NCBI GenBank assembly: GCA_003024175.1
Contig: MDYQ01000257.1
Span: 186,001-250,000 of the forward strand
Origin: Planoprotostelium fungivorum
Lineage: Eukaryota; Evosea; Variosea; Cavosteliida; Cavosteliaceae
Reading direction: 5' to 3'
DNA length: 64,000 nucleotides
The notes below the pieces were generated by a model. That model saw only the letters and a program-made list of their open reading frames with translations, was not told the origin of the DNA and ran no database searches. Both the position numbers and the translations under genes were made by a program. Each line of letters opens with the position of its first letter. The stretch's first letter is position 1. Below are positions 20,521 to 32,300 of the stretch, piece by piece.

Positions 20521-22161
20521 TCATACAGCCTCGGGTGCGCTGATGGCAACGGTCTCCGCGTAAGGCATCAAACTTTCGATCACCTTCTGATGACCTGATC
20601 GTCATCAACATCAACACGTGCCATCCTGCACTTTACCTCCGATGGCCGCCGACAATATTGCATCTCCCAACTTTCCCCCTCGCCTGACCCTCTCATCTTG
20701 CAACAACCGATTCACGATGGATTCATTTCCCGCCAAGGACGCCTGCAGTAGAGCTTCCTTCGATCTCATCAGACGATCCACATCATCATCATCATCATCA
20801 TCGCGATGATCGACTCACATTACCAACAGCAGACGGATCAACTCTGGGATCTTTCAAGAGGAGATCGACTAATTCGAGGGGAGCCGTGACAGAAGAGCAG
20901 ACGGCCCGAATGGCCCAATTCTGGTGGAAGGAAGGGTCCACCCTTCCGTCTTTCAGAAGCACCCTCACGTTCTCCGTCTGTGTCATCGTCATCATCAGAT
21001 CGTGTCATCGTCATCAGATGATGTGATCGAGGCAAAGGACGTCACCTGTTCTTTCACGATGGCTACGGTCAACACGGCGGACTCATCTTGCGTCGGATCG
21101 ACTCTCTCATCCCGGATGATCAGCTCCAGCAATTCGGGTGACCCGGAAGAGGCTACGTACTTGGGCACGAAATTTCCTGTAGATGTCAGATGACGTGTCG
21201 ACGTCGACAAAACTTCACCGTCGGATGGGTCCACTCGAGGATCGGACAAGAGCAATTTTGTTGCTTCTACGTGGCCGTTGGCGACGCAAAATTTGAGTGC
21301 TTGATTGTCGGAGGCGGCAGGATTCACTTTCGTGTTATCCAGTAGATAACGAATCATATCCGTGTGACCACTGGCCGCAGCACACCACATGATGCGATTT
21401 GCCTGTCATCTTTTTCAACGAGATCATCACGGAAGAGTGGATTGGATGGTGATGGATGAAGATGCACCTGTTGCTCTGACCAATCGGGTTGGATGTATTT
21501 GAGAAACAACATGACCAGTCGAGTGTCTTGGGAGACCATAGCCCTCTCTAGAGGTAGACCGTTCTCCGCTGATGGATCGACTCTGGGATCCTCTAAGAGG
21601 ATGCGAACGACATCGATGTGACCGTAGGCGGCGGCGTATTTGATGCAGAAGTTGTCATCTGCATCATAGTTTCAGAGAGGGAAGAGGGTGATGTGATGGA
21701 CCTGCAGACGGATCGGCTCCGTGTTGGATGATGACATTGACGGCATCTGCGTGGCCGTTCGTGGTTGCCAACTGTGGACGTTAGTTGGTGGATGATATTT
21801 GGTTCCATCGTCTCACTTCGAGGGCAGATTGGATGGTGATGGGAGTGTGTCGGTGGGCCAGACATAGTTTCAATGACTCAATCTTATTGGATGACGCTGA
21901 AACCACCATGACCTGTAAGTGACGTCAGCTGGGCAGTCGTTTACGAATCACCTTCGCCGTCTCATAATCGAATAATTGATCTGCCATGTCTCTCCATTCT
22001 TTACAGACGCTCCTCAGGACACACCAATATACACTCTCTTCTTCCATCTTTTCGACCGTCTCGTCCAACATCTCTTCATCTTTCTCGTCTACCAAACGTA
22101 GTAATTGTCTAAAGACCTCCCACCATATGTCGTTTGGTAGATGATATCCTCCTAAGCTCAT
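20521..22161 (-). CDS. F-box and ankyrin-repeat protein
   Basis: First exon begins with an F-box (YHLPNDIWWEVFRQLLRL, then VLRSVCKEWRDMADQLF). Following exons carry at least seven ankyrin-like repeats with the ASGHTDMIRYLLDN, ANGHVEATKLLLSDPRVDPS and PLELVDLLLKDPRVDPS patterns. The VDPS loop is repeated in nearly every unit. The protein ends PYAETVAISAPEAV. F-box/ankyrin proteins are candidate SCF substrate adaptors. Start is 137 bases from the divergent gene that follows, which has a related F-box-like segment. Domain call is firm; target unknown. Confidence 0.8.
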
Positions 22162-22298
22162 TGTTTCTATTGTGATGGTCCAAGTGTGTCCGAAACGTGA
22201 CTCGCATTCGCAAATATCAGCACATCGAAATTCGATTCGCTGAACGATTGGTTAATGTTTAGAGGAAACAAACACTGTCAACACCATCACACAACACC

Positions 22299-23006: not shown

Positions 23007-26000
23007 TTACAAAAACTTTCTCAGATCCTCCAAAGAAGAGATGACTCCTGCAGCTCCCGATTCGATCAGTCTTCTCGTGGCCAGCTGACTGTTCTTCTCC
23101 TGTGGTGCGAGTATGCCAAGAGAAGAGACACCCGCCCTCGTTGCCGATAGACAATCGTCCGGTGTGTCGCCGATCATGACCGCACGCTTCACCCCTGACG
23201 TCTATATTAACACCGACTCTCTCACGTGAAATCTCACCGAGTTTTCTCAAGGCCAATTGTACGGGTTGGGGGTCTGGTTTGGCGGGAGCGTCTTCCATGC
23301 AGACGATGAGGTCGTCGGAGAAATAGCCGGATAATTGATTGTGTTCGAGGAATTTTCTCGCGTCGCTCCTGGGTCGTCCCGTGACGATTGCGAGTGGAAA
23401 TTTCGACGAAAGATCGGTCAGTAAATCGGCAGCGATGAGACATCTCTCCGTCTTCCACAGACCTTCTCTACCCTCCGTCCCCTGGTAAAATTCCTCGAAA
23501 ATTCTCGTCACCTACGGTCTCGTTGAGATGTCACGTGTGATATCATCGTTACGTACGTCAGATAGAGGTGGGGGGCTGGGCAGGGATTTTGAAAGGAGCC
23601 GTTGGGTCAATACCCAGTCGTTGTTTGCATTTCCCGCCATTTTAGCCTGGGTGATATCTTCGCCTGTCACTTGTACACCCCAGTGTGCAGCGGTATTGAT
23701 GATAGCCTGAGAAGTTGAGCGAAATTTACTCAAAATTTCCAAACCTGACGGTAAGAAGAGGAGACGTCGACCATGACTCCGTCCATGTCCAAGATGATGG
23801 CCTCGGGTTTCAAATGTTTGAACCCCGACGTACGGTACTCCTCCAGGGCGGTGAGTACCGCATCCATCTCCGACATTTTTCCCGCCGAAATTCGAATGAA
23901 ATTCGACAGAGCGGCCGTGGAGAAGTATCGAATCAGAATTCCCCTCTGTCTCAGATAACTGGCCAAGTCCGCAGCGCTAAATCCTAAAACCTACCGTATA
24001 TCATCATCATATCATCCATCTACAACGCACCTCGACCAATACGAAATTCGCCTCGGTGGGCAGGGCCTTCAGCCACGAAATTTTCCCGATTTTTCCGATG
24101 AGATAGTCTCTCGCATCGAGCAGCAAGTCCACCGTAACATTGATGTCCTTGATCTTCTGCAGGGAAATTCGTCCCGCCACATCAGCAGCGATATTCACAT
24201 TGTAAGGTTGTTTGAGTGCCATCATCCAATCTATAACGCTGGGGTGTCCCACGGCGAACCCCAGACGTAAACCGGCCAGACCTGGAGACTTTCAGACCGA
24301 GAGATTTCTGCGAAATTTCTCACCGGCCCACTTGGAGAAGGTTCGAGCTACGACGAGGTTGTCGTAAGTTCGGACGAGATCGAGACTACTCTTCTTGGAA
24401 AATTCGGCGTAGGCCTCGTCGATTACAACGAGACAGTCGAGTTCGGTGCACAATCTTGCCACGTCATCGTTCGGGATGACGTCACCCGTAGGGTTGTTGG
24501 GGGAGGGTAAGAAGACGACTTTTCTCGGAAAATTTCCGGACTTGACCACGGAGATAAACTCCTGGGTGTCGAAGGCAAAACTGAAATTATTTCAGAATTT
24601 CCGGGAAAATTCATGGAAACTCACTCGTTATCACGGCGACGGGGTACGTCGATGATGGTGGCCTTCGAGATTTTTCCGAGAAAATTGTACATGCCAAAGG
24701 TGGGAGAGCTGATGTAGATTGCCTGTGGGTCTACCATACGTATGACAATGTCTAAGATATCATCTGATCCACTACCAGACACGATCCAATCCTCCGGGTA
24801 CTGACAGAATTTCGACAGCTGGCACGGCGTGTCAAGAGAAATTCGGAAGAAAATTCATCACCTCGCTGCGGAGGTGGGTCTGACCGGGATCCGGGTAAAT
24901 GTGTAATTCCGATTTTCCGATAGCGTCCCTGACTTCCTGGTGCGGCCCGTACGAGTTTTCATTTCCGTCTAATTTCACCAAATTTTCCACGGAAATTCCG
25001 ATCTCAGCGGCCACCACATCTAACGGCTTGATGGGCTTGTACCTCTCCAACCGATTCAAATCGTCGCGTAGCAACCGAGTGATGGGACCTAGGGTGGGGG
25101 TGAGGGGGTGGGCTCAAATATTCGTGACGCCGATCGATTTATTCACCTCTCGACGGAGAGAGAGCAGAAGTATCGTTCGGGAGTATCCTCTTAATCGCCG
25201 CGGCGCTGTGTCCGTGTAGTCCTTCCAGCAAAGCCAAGTCCCTCGCATCTCGAGCCAGTAGCTGTACACGTCAGATTGTCGTAAGAGATATCATGACGAT
25301 CGTACCTGAGAGGAGGCGGCGTCGTCGACGTAAATGAAAGTTCGGATTCTCAAGAAAGTGAAAACGGATAAACCACCGGAATTTCTCGCCGTGGCTCCAG
25401 TGGGAAGCACGTGATTCGGACCGGCTCCGTAATCTCCCAACACCTGTGTACGTAAGTTGAAATTTCCGCATCTACAACGAACCTCTCCCGACAAGTGCCC
25501 GATGAACAACCCTCCGTAGTGACGAAGTTTCTTCGAATATTCCCAGGCGTCAGCGGTGTGGACCTACTGGCGTCAGTCCATCTACAACGAGCCCGTTTCA
25601 CCTCCAAGTGCTCTGGTGCAACGATGTCAGATACTCTCGCCGCTTCGTCCAGATCTTTACAGATCACAGTGAATCCATTCTTCACGGCCTGTCTGGCGAT
25701 ATCTGCCGTGGGCAACACCTGTCCCACATCACCACCAGTTCTCCACAAATTCTCCACGAGATCTCCCACCTCCAATTGTCTCGTGATCTCGTCGTCCACT
25801 TGATCGGCCATCAAGGAAGAGGTGGTGATAAGTATCGGTCTTGCATCGGGATCGTGTTCAGCTTGTGCCAATAGATCTGCAGCCACTGTAGATGGATCTG
25901 CCGTATCATCTGCGATGACGAGACATTCTGATGGTCCGGCCAACATGTCGATCTTCACTCTGCCAGATACCTTGATGGGTCAGAGATCTCACGGAGATTT

Positions 26001-28661
26001 CGGAGAAAACTCGTGGAAAACTCACCAGTTGCTTGGCGGCCGTGACGAATTTGTTGCCGGGGCCGACGAGAACGTCGACGGCGGGAATTTCTTCGGTGCC
26101 GAATGCGAGAGCTCCGATGGCTTGGGCTCCACCTTGTACGTGTGAGTACGGAGAAATGATGGAAATCTCGTGGAAATCTCACCGACGCACAAGAGAGCAT
26201 CGGCTCCCGCCAAGTGAGCCGCGGCGATGGTGACGGGTGCCGGTCTGGGAGATGCCACCCACACCTTTTACCGTCAGAATCCATCTATAACGAGCCACTC
26301 TCACCTGCTTGACTCCCGCTACCCTCGCCGTGATGGCTGTCATGAGAACAGAGGACGGTAATGGAAATCTACCCCCCGGTGCATAGCAACCAGCTCGCTC
26401 GCAGGCCTCCACGGTGTGACCCGCCTTACCTCCCTCAATATTTGTCGTCAAATCCTTCGAAATTCAGAAAGGTTCGTTGTAGATCGATAACATTACCGTG
26501 ATGCAGTTCCTCTGGCTCTGCGCGAATTTGCGAATGCGATCTGCGGTTCTCTTCAGTGTATCTTGTTGCTCCGAGGGTAGACTATCAAAGACTCTCTTCA
26601 TCTCTTCGGGGTACACGATGAATCTCTGACGTCATATTACATCATCTACATAGGTCACGTGACCCACCTGTCCCTCTTTGATGTCACCCAGCCGAACGGC
26701 GTGCTTCAGTAGGGCAGCTTGACCGTGTTTCGCGACATCGTCTACGATATCTCTGGAAATGGCCAAGACCTTTTCGTCTAGCGGATCGTCCGCGGCGGCC
26801 GAAACTTCCGCGGGGGTCAAGAGTCTCAATTGGCGAGTTGTAGTCGGCTGAATCTCCTCCAATTTTCTCGCTTCTTCCCTCGAAATTTCCGTGACGGGTG
26901 GTGCCTGTACAACTTTCGCATCCCCCGCCCTCCTCGTTACCTAGACGACCAGTGAGTCACCTTCACGTGACATGAACACGGTAGGTACTGTGAAACTCAC
27001 TCTCATAGATCTCAGATCTAAATGTCTCTCTATGTCTTTGAGGGTAGCTCCCTTCTTCACTGCCGTTACCATGGCAAAATAGATGACGTCAGCCGCTTCC
27101 CACGCCGCCTCCGCAGCATCCTTCGCCGTCATCAATTCTTCGGCCTCCTCGAACAATTTGGACCTATCTACAATCAGCCAGTCCCAATTCGTCTCTCCCG
27201 CCACCTCAAGAGTGCGTCGTCGCGGAATAAACGATTCGTGTAAGAGCCTTCGGTGGGATTGTTCAATCGATCTACTAGTGTCTCTTCTAATTGAGAGATG
27301 CCGCTGTTCACTCCACGGCCGAAACACGATCTCTTCTCTCTGTGGCAGAATCCTCTTCCGTTCTGGTGAACGACGAAGCACACGGAGTCACGATCGCAGT
27401 CGACCTGAACGATTCAGAGAGTGAAATTTCGTCGAGATTTCACCTCGATTCGAAGGAGATCTTGTGTGGCACCGGATGTCTCTCCTTTTCTCCACAGACC
27501 TCGATTTCTAGATTGGTAGACTCCCTTCATCGTCTTCACCGACTCCACAATGCTCTCTCTGCTCGAGTACACCTGAAATTTCGTCGACATTTCGTGTGAG
27601 AGGGTGACGTCACCTGTCCCAAAAGTTTGCGACTCTCGTCGACGACTACGGTGGTGAAGAGACCGTCTGGGCGGTCTGTCTTGATCGTGGCGGCAATAGC
27701 TTCTCCCAAGTCCATGCGGTGAGTGTACAATGCCATTCCAACCTGTCGTATGACGTTAAATGACGTCCTCGAGGAGAGCGTTGTAGATTTATGAAATTTT
27801 GGGAAATTCACCTGGGCTTCTATACCCATGGCGTCCAATTTGGCCACGTCATCGACTGTGGTTACGCCTCCAGCTATCGTGAGATCTACACCGCATGCAC
27901 TGGCCTTCAGTTTCTCTACAAACGACCAATCTAATCCTACTCCACGTCAGACGTGAAATTTCGCCGGAATCTCACCTTCCATCCTGCCCTCTCGCTCGAC
28001 GAGCGTTACGAGGAAACCCGATACGTACGGTGACAGCTCCTTCATTCTATCAAACACTGACACGCCGGTCTTTGTCGTCCATCCCTTCACTACAACCTGC
28101 CACGATCGTCAGATCATCGTCACATCGCAATCGTGTGATCGATCACCTCTCCGTGGACGGCATCGAGCGCTGCCACAACTCTCTCTCGCGGTAACTGCCG
28201 TAAGACTTCCACGGTAGCTGCCGTCCCCAAGACAACTTTGGCGGCGCCCAAGTTGAGCCACTCGATGGCGGACTCGACTGATCGTATTCCACCGCCAACT
28301 CTACAATCTGCCAGACGAAGTAGGTCTATGATGGTGTCTCGGTTGTTGCCGCGGCCGAGAGCCGCATCTAGATCGACGACTGGATGATGGTCAGTGATTT
28401 GTCTCGATGGAGAAGAGTTGGCAGACCTGCTATATCGCCGGCAACACCGAAACGCTTGGCAATGGGTCTGGGATCACCAGCATCGACTTTGAGTTCTTCT
28501 ACCTGATGTCAGGGGTTAGCAACGTTCGTTCATTGTTAGCACTGTGAGAGGAGTTCTATCTGCGCCAAAGATGAAGATCATGTCGGAGGAACACTCACTT
28601 TCCCACCAACGAGCTGAACGGCGTGGCCATTCAGGAGATCGATGGACGGTATGATAGGCAT
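23007..28661 (-). CDS. Six-domain histidine biosynthesis protein: HisA-HisI-HisE-HisD-HisC-HAD
   Basis: One reading frame runs through about twenty short introns; I checked the domain junctions. HisA (28.66-27.7 kb): [42 protein letters not shown]. His[50 protein letters not shown]. His[23 protein letters not shown]. HisD (26.93-25.14 kb): [48 protein letters not shown]. HisC (25.09-23.85 kb): [37 protein letters not shown] with the PLP Lys. HAD (23.8-23.0 kb): [30 protein letters not shown]. HisE-HisD joins in phase 0 and HisD-HisC in phase 1; HisC-HAD junction lies inside one exon. Together these give steps 2, 3 and 4, the aminotransferase and dehydrogenase, plus a candidate histidinol-phosphate phosphatase. 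HisG, HisB dehydratase and HisF/H are absent. Estimated length is 1,550 residues. Confidence 0.9.
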
Positions 28662-29343: not shown

Positions 29344-32300
29344 ATGAGGTGGCTCACGTTGGTTGTATTCCACATACTTGTATACGTTGTCTTAAATGCG
29401 AGTGGTCAATCATTAAGTCAATCTGTTCCAGTCCTTCAACGCTTCTGGTCTACTCTTGGAGGTAAGACAATCCCATCCAACGATAGGAAGGATTGTTGAC
29501 TCATTTTGCATCAGGTCCTAGCAATCAATGGAATGGACAGAATGTGAGTCGCATGACTTTCGCTGAAATGACTGAATGAGATAGCCATGTGACTCGTCAA
29601 ATTATGTCGGCATTCAGTGTGCCGCCGACGGTCAACATTATACCATATTCCTCTCCAATTTGAATCTGAATGGGAAGATCATCGACGACATCGGAAGCCT
29701 TGGAACCCTAGTCACCTCCATCTCCTTAGATGGCAACGTCATATCAGGATCACTTCCAAACAGTCTCTGCGACTTGACTTCGCTCTTTCATTTCAGTGCT
29801 TCCAGGTGACCATCGTGGTGCATTCATCATCTTTAACTTTACATCAGCACTGGCCTCACTGGATCCATTCCCACTTGTATAGACAACATGAAAGCTTTGG
29901 GTGAATTATTCCTCGACTCGAATTCTCTTAGTGGCTCCGTGAGTTAAGGTCACACGTCCATCGTTCTCAATCATCATCAGATCCCCTCCGGCATCGGCAG
30001 TCTGTCTTCACTCCAGGCCTTCACAGCCATGTCCAATCAACTCACCGGAGGCATTCCCACCTCTATGCAAGGATTGACGAACCTCACGAAACTCATGCTG
30101 ACTGGCAATCGATTGAGTGGCAGTCTACCCTCTATCTTCTCTACCTTGACTTCTCTCAGCATCCTTCACTTGGTAAGATCTCATCTCTTCATCATCATCT
30201 ATTCCGGATCCTTTTATTTTCATTTATTTCTCTTCAGAACGGGAACCAATTCACAAACGATCCTCCCTCTAGCCTGTGGAGTATGGTACGTACACCGTCA
30301 CGATATTTCACTGAAAACTCTTCAGAAGAGCCTCACCGAACTGGATCTGTCAGTCAATCAATTGACGGGCAGCATCCCCTCTTCTATCGGCGTCATGACG
30401 AACCTGAATGTGAGACATCTGATTTCATATAGAAGACATCAAGTGAGACGACTTCAGTTGCTATCATTGAACAACAACGGATTCACCATGTCTATACCCA
30501 CCCAATTGGGTGACCTCACTGCACTCTTCTACCTCAACTTGGGGTGAAATTTCCTCGAAATTCCATCCACTCACGCAACGTCAGTTACAATTCTCTCAGC
30601 GGAACGATACCCTCGTCCCTTCTACAACTCGCCAATTTAAAAGTGCTCAACTTACGCCAGAACCATTTGAGCGGAACGATACCCAACTTTCCCCTCCTCC
30701 CCTCTCTCACCTCCATGGACGTGTCCGTCAATTCTTTCACTGCCTTCGACAACAGTGCCTCTATATCGAATCCACAGACGTCTCCTCTTCTATCGGTTTC
30801 CATGAGTCAGAACCTCATCGTCGGTGTCGCTCCACTCATCGCGGGAAATTTTCCGAATCTATTATCTCTCGACGTGGGAAGCAATCAACTCATCAGTGGA
30901 ACGTGTCATACGAACATGTCGGCTGCGACTGCACTTCTCATGGGAGGAAATAATTTGACCGAAATTCCTGCTTGCGTCTTGCAGATGAAGAATTTGGCCT
31001 ACCTGGACGTGGGGTGAGAAAATGAGAAAAACGAGGGAAAGTGACTTGTTTCGTTGTAGATTCAATCAATTGAAGACTCTACCTACTCTTCAACTGCCCG
31101 CTCTGAACACGCTCAGCGTACAATGTGAGTTTCGAAAAACAATCGAAATTTCGCGATCGCTGACGTCATCCAGCGAATCAGATCCACACCGAACTCCCAG
31201 ATTTCTCAGGAATTTCCGCCATTTCAACCTTAGTCCTCTCATCCTGCGGCTTCACCGGTCCCATCCACTCCTCCATCTACAACCTGTCATCCGTACGAAC
31301 TCTCGATCTGTCTTCAAATCGATTGAACGGTACCGTGGGGGACTTCAGCTCGCTCACTTCTCTCGTCTCGTTGTACCTCAACGATAATTCTTTCGTGGGA
31401 AATGTCTCCACGACTTTCTGGAGCCTGGGAAATCTGACAACCATCAATCTGGGAGATAATAATGTCACGTGGGGCAATCCTACAGTCAATCCGATCAAGA
31501 CGAATGTGCAGACGGTGACGCTGAGGAACACGAACGTAGGCTACGTACCGAGGACCCTCCTGACGTCAAAATCGATCACGTTCCTAGAGATGCCCAACGT
31601 GGGTATGACTGATTTACCCGATTTATCCGGCATGACCTCCCTATCTACCCTCTTTCTGGTGAGTGATGAGATTTCGACGAAATTTCGAAGCTGACGGACA
31701 CCGTAGGATTACAATCGATTGAGTGGAACCATTCCGAGTTTTTTCTCAAACATGTCTTCCCTACAGACCCTCAGCCTCAACGGTAACGCGTACACTTCGG
31801 GTCTCCAAGTCTTCCTGGGCCCTCGGCCTCCTCGGAATCTCCGCGAACTCCGATTGTACTACAATCAGATCTCCGAGGAAATTCCGAGCACGATCTACCC
31901 CAATTCACTTCAGAATCTCGTCCTGGCCAATAATCCCATGGGAAGTACTTTGAAGAAATCTCTCGGAAATCTCACCCAACTCGTCACGCTTGACATGTCC
32001 GTGTGTGGGCTGCAGGGGAAAATTCCAGGAGAATTATTTGCGCTGCCCAATGTCACACTGATCAATCTCCGTGGTAACCAACTTTCGGGTGATTTGTCGT
32101 GGCCCGCTCGATCGAATCTACAGAGCGTGGACTTGGTGAGTGAAATCTCCGTGAAATTTCACTCAATCGACGCGACAGTCATCGAATGAATTGGGAGGGA
32201 TTGTACCCGATTTCAGCTCGTGGAACGATCTACAATCGATCGATCTACACAACAATAATTTCTCCGGTTTAGCCTCTCCATCGTTACCCTCATCCCTCCC

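What the first reader, a model, noticed from the sequence alone, without database searches (positions are those of the whole stretch)
23007..28661. Six histidine-pathway modules fused in one intron-rich gene, including a candidate phosphatase
Seen: motifs of HisA, HisI, HisE, HisD, HisC and a HAD phosphatase run collinearly in one frame; I checked HisE-HisD (phase 0), HisD-HisC (phase 1) and HisC-HAD (same exon). Known: yeast HIS4 fuses HisI-HisE-HisD only, and HisC and the histidinol-phosphate phosphatase are separate proteins in yeast. Inferred: the HAD domain supplies the phosphatase step next to HisC and HisD, so three consecutive late reactions (HisC, phosphatase, HisD) sit on one chain, possibly with channelling.
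Basis: partly seen in the sequence, partly recalled or inferred. Interest (0 to 1): 0.85.

Follow-up and report, generated by a model that had tools for sequence, protein, structure and literature searches.

The report
Six-part histidine enzyme with predicted phosphatase
A probable amoeba carries one intron-rich gene that joins six histidine-making enzyme parts in a single protein, and the part of unknown function looks, from bacterial gene clusters, like a so far unassigned kind of histidinol-phosphate phosphatase.

Summary
On the minus strand, window 28661-23007, 27 exons (26 GT-AG introns of 38-96 nt) spell one 1,472-residue frame: HisA-HisI-HisE-HisD-HisC-HAD. A EukProt transcript ORF has the same six parts at 65% identity over the whole length (P0001). 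The HAD part passes the cut-off of TIGR01548, a family without assigned function. Bacterial context suggests the function: 11 of 11 clear TIGR01548 loci hold hisC and at least one more his gene, against 2 of 69 loci of other HADs. In 20 of 20 fetched loci of a Myxococcota sample it is fused to HisC with hisB nearby, and 16 of the 20 hold all ten his domains. It is therefore most likely the histidinol-phosphate phosphatase; no activity is shown. Three of 24 related proteins have a damaged or unrecognisable HAD. Channelling is untested. The fusion is a new variant of a known kind: Acanthamoeba's seven-activity his gene is published. Side result: the N-terminal region of fungal HIS4 that a 2007 paper left unexplained looks like a dead HisA barrel, so HIS4 may descend from a HisA-I-E-D fusion.

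The parts
23007..28661 (-). Whole gene: 27 exons, 26 introns, 1,472-aa HisA-HisI-HisE-HisD-HisC-HAD protein
   Evidence: Spliced frame without internal stop; 65% identical full-length transcript ORF P0001
27686..28661 (-). HisA part (residues 1-225), bacterial-type; IPSIDL with the catalytic Asp (role recalled) kept; the only HisA found in the genome
   Evidence: PF00977 over cut-off, TIGR00007 below it; genome search; coordinates
27297..27685 (-). HisI part, phosphoribosyl-AMP cyclohydrolase (residues 226-328)
   Evidence: PF01502; coordinates
27007..27296 (-). HisE part, phosphoribosyl-ATP pyrophosphatase (residues 329-411)
   Evidence: PF01503; coordinates
25187..26790 (-). HisD part, histidinol dehydrogenase (residues 464-864)
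   Evidence: TIGR00069 424.9 bits, cut-off 243.8; coordinates
25719..25769 (-). 51-nt in-frame intron inside the HisD part that a frame-only reading misses
   Evidence: GT...AG; 17 residues absent from P0001, P0002 and P0003
23838..25068 (-). HisC part, histidinol-phosphate aminotransferase (residues 885-1238)
   Evidence: TIGR01141 286.3 bits, cut-off 276.55; coordinates
23010..23801 (-). HAD part, TIGR01548 family, predicted histidinol-phosphate phosphatase (residues 1251-1472); DMDGV, VTGRP, AKPDP, GDTPDD and the family word GNANNDW present
   Evidence: TIGR01548 153.7 bits, cut-off 140.2; motif positions; bacterial context

Best explanation
The gene encodes one polypeptide with the enzymes for steps 2, 3 and 4 (HisE, HisI, HisA), 7 (HisC), 8 (HAD phosphatase) and 9-10 (HisD) of histidine synthesis (step numbers recalled). 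The HAD part belongs to TIGR01548 and removes phosphate from histidinol phosphate by the usual HAD chemistry (Asp nucleophile of DxD, phospho-Asp intermediate, Mg2+; recalled), giving histidinol to the HisD part of the same chain. HisH-HisF and HisB are on other contigs. Shown here: the fusion in the DNA, the domain assignments, intact motifs, and the link of this HAD family with his operons. Inferred: expression as one protein in this organism, phosphatase activity, and any benefit beyond fixed stoichiometry. Origin, inferred: HisA-I-E-D and the HAD come from a his operon like that of Myxococcota; the HisC part is of another subtype.
For: Domain scans. Same six-domain order in P0001, P0002, P0003, P0009, P0011; P0001 and P0003 are EukProt transcript ORFs, P0011 is labelled Sexangularia. 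TIGR01548 with hisC and at least one more his gene in 11 of 11 strong loci versus 2 of 69 other-HAD loci; with two or more, 9 of 11 versus 2 of 69. HisC~HAD in one ORF in 20 of 20 Myxococcota-sample loci fetched out of 59 positive genomes of 282; all ten his domains in 16 of these 20 and in 5 of the 11 strong loci. A free-standing HAD between hisC and hisB in L045. In 11 genomes with this HAD beside his genes: no PHP phosphatase (0 of 11) and no TIGR02067 HisN (0 of 11) over cut-off. Own genome: no TIGR01856 and no TIGR01656 match, one HisA, no second TIGR01548. HisC of the D-C-HAD proteins lies apart from that of the bacterial operons (100/99), while the HADs stay close (43-52% in the 20 loci), so this HAD was joined to two HisC types. 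H. volcanii has TIGR01548 over cut-off, and a HAD mutant there (HVO_0431) is a histidine auxotroph (passages of PMC4300041, and PMC8305020).
Against: No enzyme assay. Three of 24 related D-C proteins have a damaged or unrecognisable HAD (P0006, P0007 of Arcella, P0048), so the part is not always needed; another phosphatase must then serve. Ten of 11 such bacterial genomes hold inositol-phosphatase-like genes below the HisN cut-off, and the own genome holds such genes on C93, C7 and C90/C194, which could dephosphorylate histidinol phosphate. One locus with a partial 41% HAD match (L049) has no his genes found. Only 17 of the 282 sampled genomes pass the curated TIGR01548 cut-off; the other 42 of the 59 are below it. 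Exon-by-exon search is weak: the HAD itself scored 104.9 bits there versus 153.7 spliced, and its spliced TIGR01656 match of 48.5 bits was not seen at all, so absences are soft. I could not check that HVO_0431 is the TIGR01548 protein; the insertion site printed for it lies 5 bp from that of HVO_1312, which looks like an error. HisA misses its equivalog cut-off.
Confidence: 0.86

Rival explanations
1. The fusion is real, but the HAD is a house-cleaning or broad phosphatase (phosphoglycolate-phosphatase-like), and histidinol phosphate is dephosphorylated by an inositol-phosphatase-like enzyme elsewhere.
For: Next-best family for the HAD is phosphoglycolate phosphatase (51.7 bits, cut-off 225). 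Inositol-phosphatase-family genes exist in the genome and, below the HisN cut-off, in 10 of 11 bacteria with the operon. Three of 24 relatives have damaged or lost HAD motifs.
Against: A broad phosphatase need not sit with his genes in 11 of 11 loci and be joined to two HisC types. C93 and C7 show the DPxDGTxNFVH form of ordinary inositol monophosphatase, and C90 a bisphosphate-nucleotidase-like form (judged by eye, subtype motifs recalled).
Confidence: 0.1
2. Two or more genes lie head to tail and are joined only in my model, with transcripts ending between HisD and HisC.
For: No transcript of this organism was seen; exon ends were set by hand, and one intron was missed at first.
Against: Transcript ORFs labelled complete, P0001 (65%) and P0003 (52%), span all six parts. 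No stop lies in the spliced frame, and HisC-HAD share an exon.
Confidence: 0.03
3. The HAD part is now a structural or dimer-forming appendage of HisC rather than an enzyme.
For: Tails without recognisable HAD motifs follow HisC in P0007 and P0048.
Against: All four motifs are intact in the window and in 21 of 24 relatives; 40 invariant columns over 12 aligned HADs include the motif residues (these 12 left out the damaged ones).
Confidence: 0.05

Closest known systems
Acanthamoeba heptafunctional his gene (P0010; PMC6029752, abstract and sections 19 and 26 read)
   Same: HisA-HisI-HisE-HisD core in the same order; 55% identical over 60% of the query
   Different: Acanthamoeba adds HisH-HisF in front and HisG behind, and has no HisC or HAD on that chain; here HisH-HisF lie on contig C394 and HisC-HAD follow HisD
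Fungal HIS4 (P0241 S. cerevisiae; PMC1963479, passages and section 12 read)
   Same: HisI-HisE-HisD in the same order; the N-terminal region aligns with the start of the HisA part through P0005 and its model folds like HisA/HisF
   Different: The HisA-like part is shorter and reads LPILPL where the window HisA has IPSIDL, so the catalytic Asp is gone; no HisC, no HAD
HisD-HisC-HAD-HisB proteins (11 of the 24, e.g. P0044 Chromera velia, P0017)
   Same: HisD-HisC-HAD core; HisC 39-46% and HAD 37-46% identical
   Different: No HisA-I-E; imidazoleglycerol-phosphate dehydratase (PF00475) is present instead
Bacterial HisC~HAD and HisA~I~E(~D) fusions in his operons (L022-L030, L139-L158)
   Same: Same HAD family (43-52% in L139-L158, 40-49% in L022-L030) and HisA (54-65% in the 18 of L139-L158 that show it); HisA~I~E~D is one ORF in L025, L144, L152
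   Different: Separate polypeptides; HisC is a different subtype (23-35% identical)
Known phosphatases: E. coli HisB-N (HAD), Thermococcus onnurineus HAD, PHP type, HisN type (PMC5516325, start of abstract and passages seen)
   Same: Same reaction, by inference; the E. coli and Thermococcus enzymes are also HADs
   Different: Histidinol-ppas model TIGR01656 is below cut-off (48.5/84.15); the Thermococcus protein was not compared

Membership tests
TIGR01548 HAD family | Score over the curated cut-off of 140.2 bits | tested here: met
   153.7 bits in the full protein, 158.2 for the cut domain
TIGR01548 HAD family | HAD catalytic motifs (DxD, T, K, GDxxxD; definition recalled) | tested here: met
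   DMDGV 1255, VTGRP 1362, AKPDP 1396, GDTPDD 1419; invariant over 12 aligned HADs
Histidinol-phosphate phosphatase (EC 3.1.3.15) | Hydrolysis of L-histidinol phosphate | not testable with these tools
   No assay; context only
E. coli-type HisB-N phosphatase (TIGR01656) | Score over 84.15 bits | tested here: not met
   48.5 bits for the HAD part
HisC (TIGR01141) | Score over 276.55 bits | tested here: met
   286.3 bits
HisD (TIGR00069) | Score over 243.8 bits | tested here: met
   424.9 bits after removing the missed intron, 404.8 before
HisA equivalog (TIGR00007) | Score over 228.95 bits | tested here: not met
   156.2 bits; PF00977 is over its own cut-off
Fungal HIS4 | HisI-HisE-HisD on one chain | tested here: met
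Fungal HIS4 | HisD is the last part | tested here: not met
   HisC and HAD follow
Acanthamoeba heptafunctional his protein | HisH-HisF-HisA-I-E-D-HisG on one chain | tested here: not met
   Starts at HisA; HisH-HisF on contig C394; HisG was not searched in the genome

The most novel reading that the evidence does not exclude
TIGR01548 is a separate, unassigned family of histidinol-phosphate phosphatases, used in his operons of Myxococcota, Planctomycetota, Gemmatimonadota and others, and joined to two different HisC types. Eukaryotic his megaproteins, including fungal HIS4, descend from one bacterial HisA-I-E-D fusion: in amoebae the HisA part stayed alive and HisC-HAD were added, while in fungi the HisA part died and persists as the unexplained N-terminal region of HIS4.
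Probability: 0.6. Interest if true: 0.75.

Novelty: new variant of a known kind. Interest (0 to 1): 0.6.

Why it matters
The phosphatase is the step of histidine synthesis with several unrelated enzymes (PMC5516325, passages) and open gaps, for example in haloarchaea (PMC8305020, passages). Giving TIGR01548 this role would fill that step for many bacteria and some eukaryotes, and it can be tested with one expressed domain. The fusion also offers a living version of the HisA-I-E-D protein from which fungal HIS4, a classic yeast gene, may have come, and would explain the N-terminal region that a 2007 study could not relate to anything (PMC1963479, section 12).

Tried and rejected
Rejected: a second HisA or TIGR01548 copy in the genome (none seen). 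TIGR01141 gave weaker hits on C321 (54.0 bits) and C1 (37.6 bits), which I take for other aminotransferases without testing.
Full report
OBSERVATION. The region 23007-28661 of the minus strand was read in three frames and spliced by hand at GT-AG borders. Alignment with P0001, P0002 and P0003 showed one 17-residue stretch that none of them has, and a 4-residue one in the HisE-HisD linker that I left. The long one is a 51-nt in-frame intron (25719-25769). The corrected protein has 1,472 residues from 27 exons; all 26 introns are GT-AG, 38-96 nt. Its removal raised the HisD score from 404.8 to 424.9 bits. The order HisA-HisI-HisE-HisD-HisC-HAD is clear. HisA is over the Pfam cut-off but under that of the equivalog TIGR00007 (156.2 of 228.95 bits), so its activity is likely but not certain. 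It is the only HisA found in the 36.9-Mb genome; the other PF00977 gene, on C394, is HisH-HisF. HisB is on C225.

RELATIVES. A search of 5.8 billion proteins (the 7,994 candidates sharing most words were scored) gave 371 hits, of which 120 were listed. I examined the 24 listed proteins that hold HisD and HisC. Nine are of the HisI-E-D-C type; five of these have a HisA part that BLAST recognises (P0001, P0002, P0003, P0009, P0011). Eleven have HisD-HisC-HAD plus HisB (PF00475), three HisD-HisC-HAD, one HisD-HisC. Eight of the 24 carry a eukaryotic source label (EukProt, Arcella, Sexangularia, Chromera); the rest are unnamed. P0001 and P0003 are transcript ORFs labelled complete, so the six-part mRNA exists in relatives. 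Sexangularia and Arcella are Amoebozoa and Chromera an alveolate. In the HisC tree the window groups with P0001 (100/100) and lies in a ten-row set with Arcella (89/98), so the host is probably an amoebozoan. The published Acanthamoeba gene with seven activities shares the HisA-I-E-D core.

WHAT THE HAD IS. It is a TIGR01548 member (153.7 bits, cut-off 140.2), a model of type 'hypoth_equivalog' named only 'TIGR01548 family HAD-type hydrolase'. It is not of the HisB-N type (TIGR01656 48.5 of 84.15 bits). Eleven hold a clear family member (BLAST E under 1e-20). All 11 have hisC and at least one more his gene on the stretch held; 9 have two or more, and the other two lie on contigs of 3.0 and 6.0 kb. 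Of the 69 loci with weaker HAD matches, 2 have any his gene besides hisC: L032, whose HAD match is cut by the contig end, and L098. The common order is hisG, hisC~HAD, hisB, hisH, hisF, hisA~I~E, hisD; 5 of the 11 hold all ten domains. In L045 the HAD is a gene of its own between hisC and hisB. L049, with a partial 41% match, has no his genes found.

A WIDER SAMPLE. In the phylum of the L025 genome (Myxococcota), 59 of 282 genomes have TIGR01548 at E 1e-30 or better, 17 of them over the curated cut-off; three of the 59 (G001, G003, G004) were already known from the first scan. I fetched 20 of the 59, taken from the 23 best rows; left out were G004 and G001, already held, and G254, near a contig end. 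These 20 are thus the best-scoring, not a random draw; 15 of them are over the cut-off. In 20 of 20 HisC and HAD share one ORF and hisB is on the stretch; in one (L140) hisB, hisH and hisF are on the other strand. Sixteen of 20 hold all ten domains. L142 fuses HisC~HAD~HisB, and L144 and L152 fuse HisA~I~E~D. In the 11 genomes of the first scan, neither a PHP phosphatase nor a TIGR02067 HisN is over cut-off (0 of 11 each), though 10 of 11 have weaker inositol-phosphatase relatives. These are metagenome-assembled genomes, so absences are soft.

INDEPENDENT HINT. Of 14 control genomes only Synechococcus elongatus and Haloferax volcanii have TIGR01548 over cut-off. In H. volcanii two identical insertions in HVO_0431, a 'HAD-superfamily hydrolase', made a histidine auxotroph (passages of PMC4300041). 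A later survey notes that it fits the only gap left in the pathway, the phosphatase (passages of PMC8305020). I could not confirm that HVO_0431 is the TIGR01548 protein. The printed insertion site is 5 bp from that of HVO_1312, which seems inconsistent.

TWO HISC TYPES, ONE HAD. HisC domains of the D-C(-HAD) proteins (18 rows) and of the bacterial operons (28 rows, two of them free-standing HisC) lie on opposite sides of a 100/99 branch. The HAD tree (47 rows) is mostly unresolved and does not part them. In the 20 fetched loci HisC is 26-35% identical to the window, HAD 43-52%, and HisA 54-65% in the 18 that show it; in the first 11 loci HisC is 23-31% and HAD 34-49%. Either this HAD was joined to HisC twice, or HisC was swapped inside a fusion. 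Both readings tie the HAD to HisC.

AGAINST. Three of the 24 D-C proteins have a damaged (P0006) or unrecognisable (P0007, P0048) HAD. The genome also has inositol-phosphatase-family genes; by eye two are of the ordinary kind and one is bisphosphate-nucleotidase-like (subtype motifs recalled). Exon-by-exon search would miss some genes: the HAD itself drops from 153.7 to 104.9 bits there.

VERDICT. A real six-part enzyme, a new variant of known his fusions, with strong contextual but no biochemical evidence that TIGR01548 is a histidinol-phosphate phosphatase. Channelling is untested.

Noticed in passing
P0241-P0360 N-termini versus window 27686-28661: The unexplained N-terminal region of fungal HIS4 looks like a degenerate HisA barrel.
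   Followed up: partly
window, 26 sites, e.g. 24018, 25470, 25580, 26475, 27779: CGTTGTAGAT occurs 26 times in the window against 0.14 expected, in both orientations; all 5 copies inside this gene lie in its introns, which make up 1,236 of 5,655 bases. Possibly an introner-like or other intron-borne repeat.
   Followed up: partly
window, 28 sites, e.g. 24312, 25459, 27423, 27575, 27955: The palindrome GAAATTTC occurs 28 times against 1.98 expected; the five sites named lie in introns of this gene.
   Followed up: no
P0006, P0007 (Arcella), P0048: Tail kept after HisC but with HAD motifs damaged or not recognisable.
   Followed up: partly
L142, L144, L152, L025: Bacteria with HisC~HAD~HisB in one ORF (L142) or HisA~I~E~D in one ORF (the others).
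   Followed up: no
L098: Woesearchaeota his gene cluster on the stretch around a HAD of another subfamily (23% identical).
   Followed up: no
G000:C90:345739-346511 and G000:C194:10892-11664: Two contigs carry matches with identical scores to the same family, so the assembly may hold uncollapsed haplotypes.
   Followed up: no
window 29585-30950 and 20611-22251: Neighbouring reading frames look like a leucine-rich-repeat protein (plus strand) and ankyrin-like repeats (minus strand), judged by eye.
   Followed up: no
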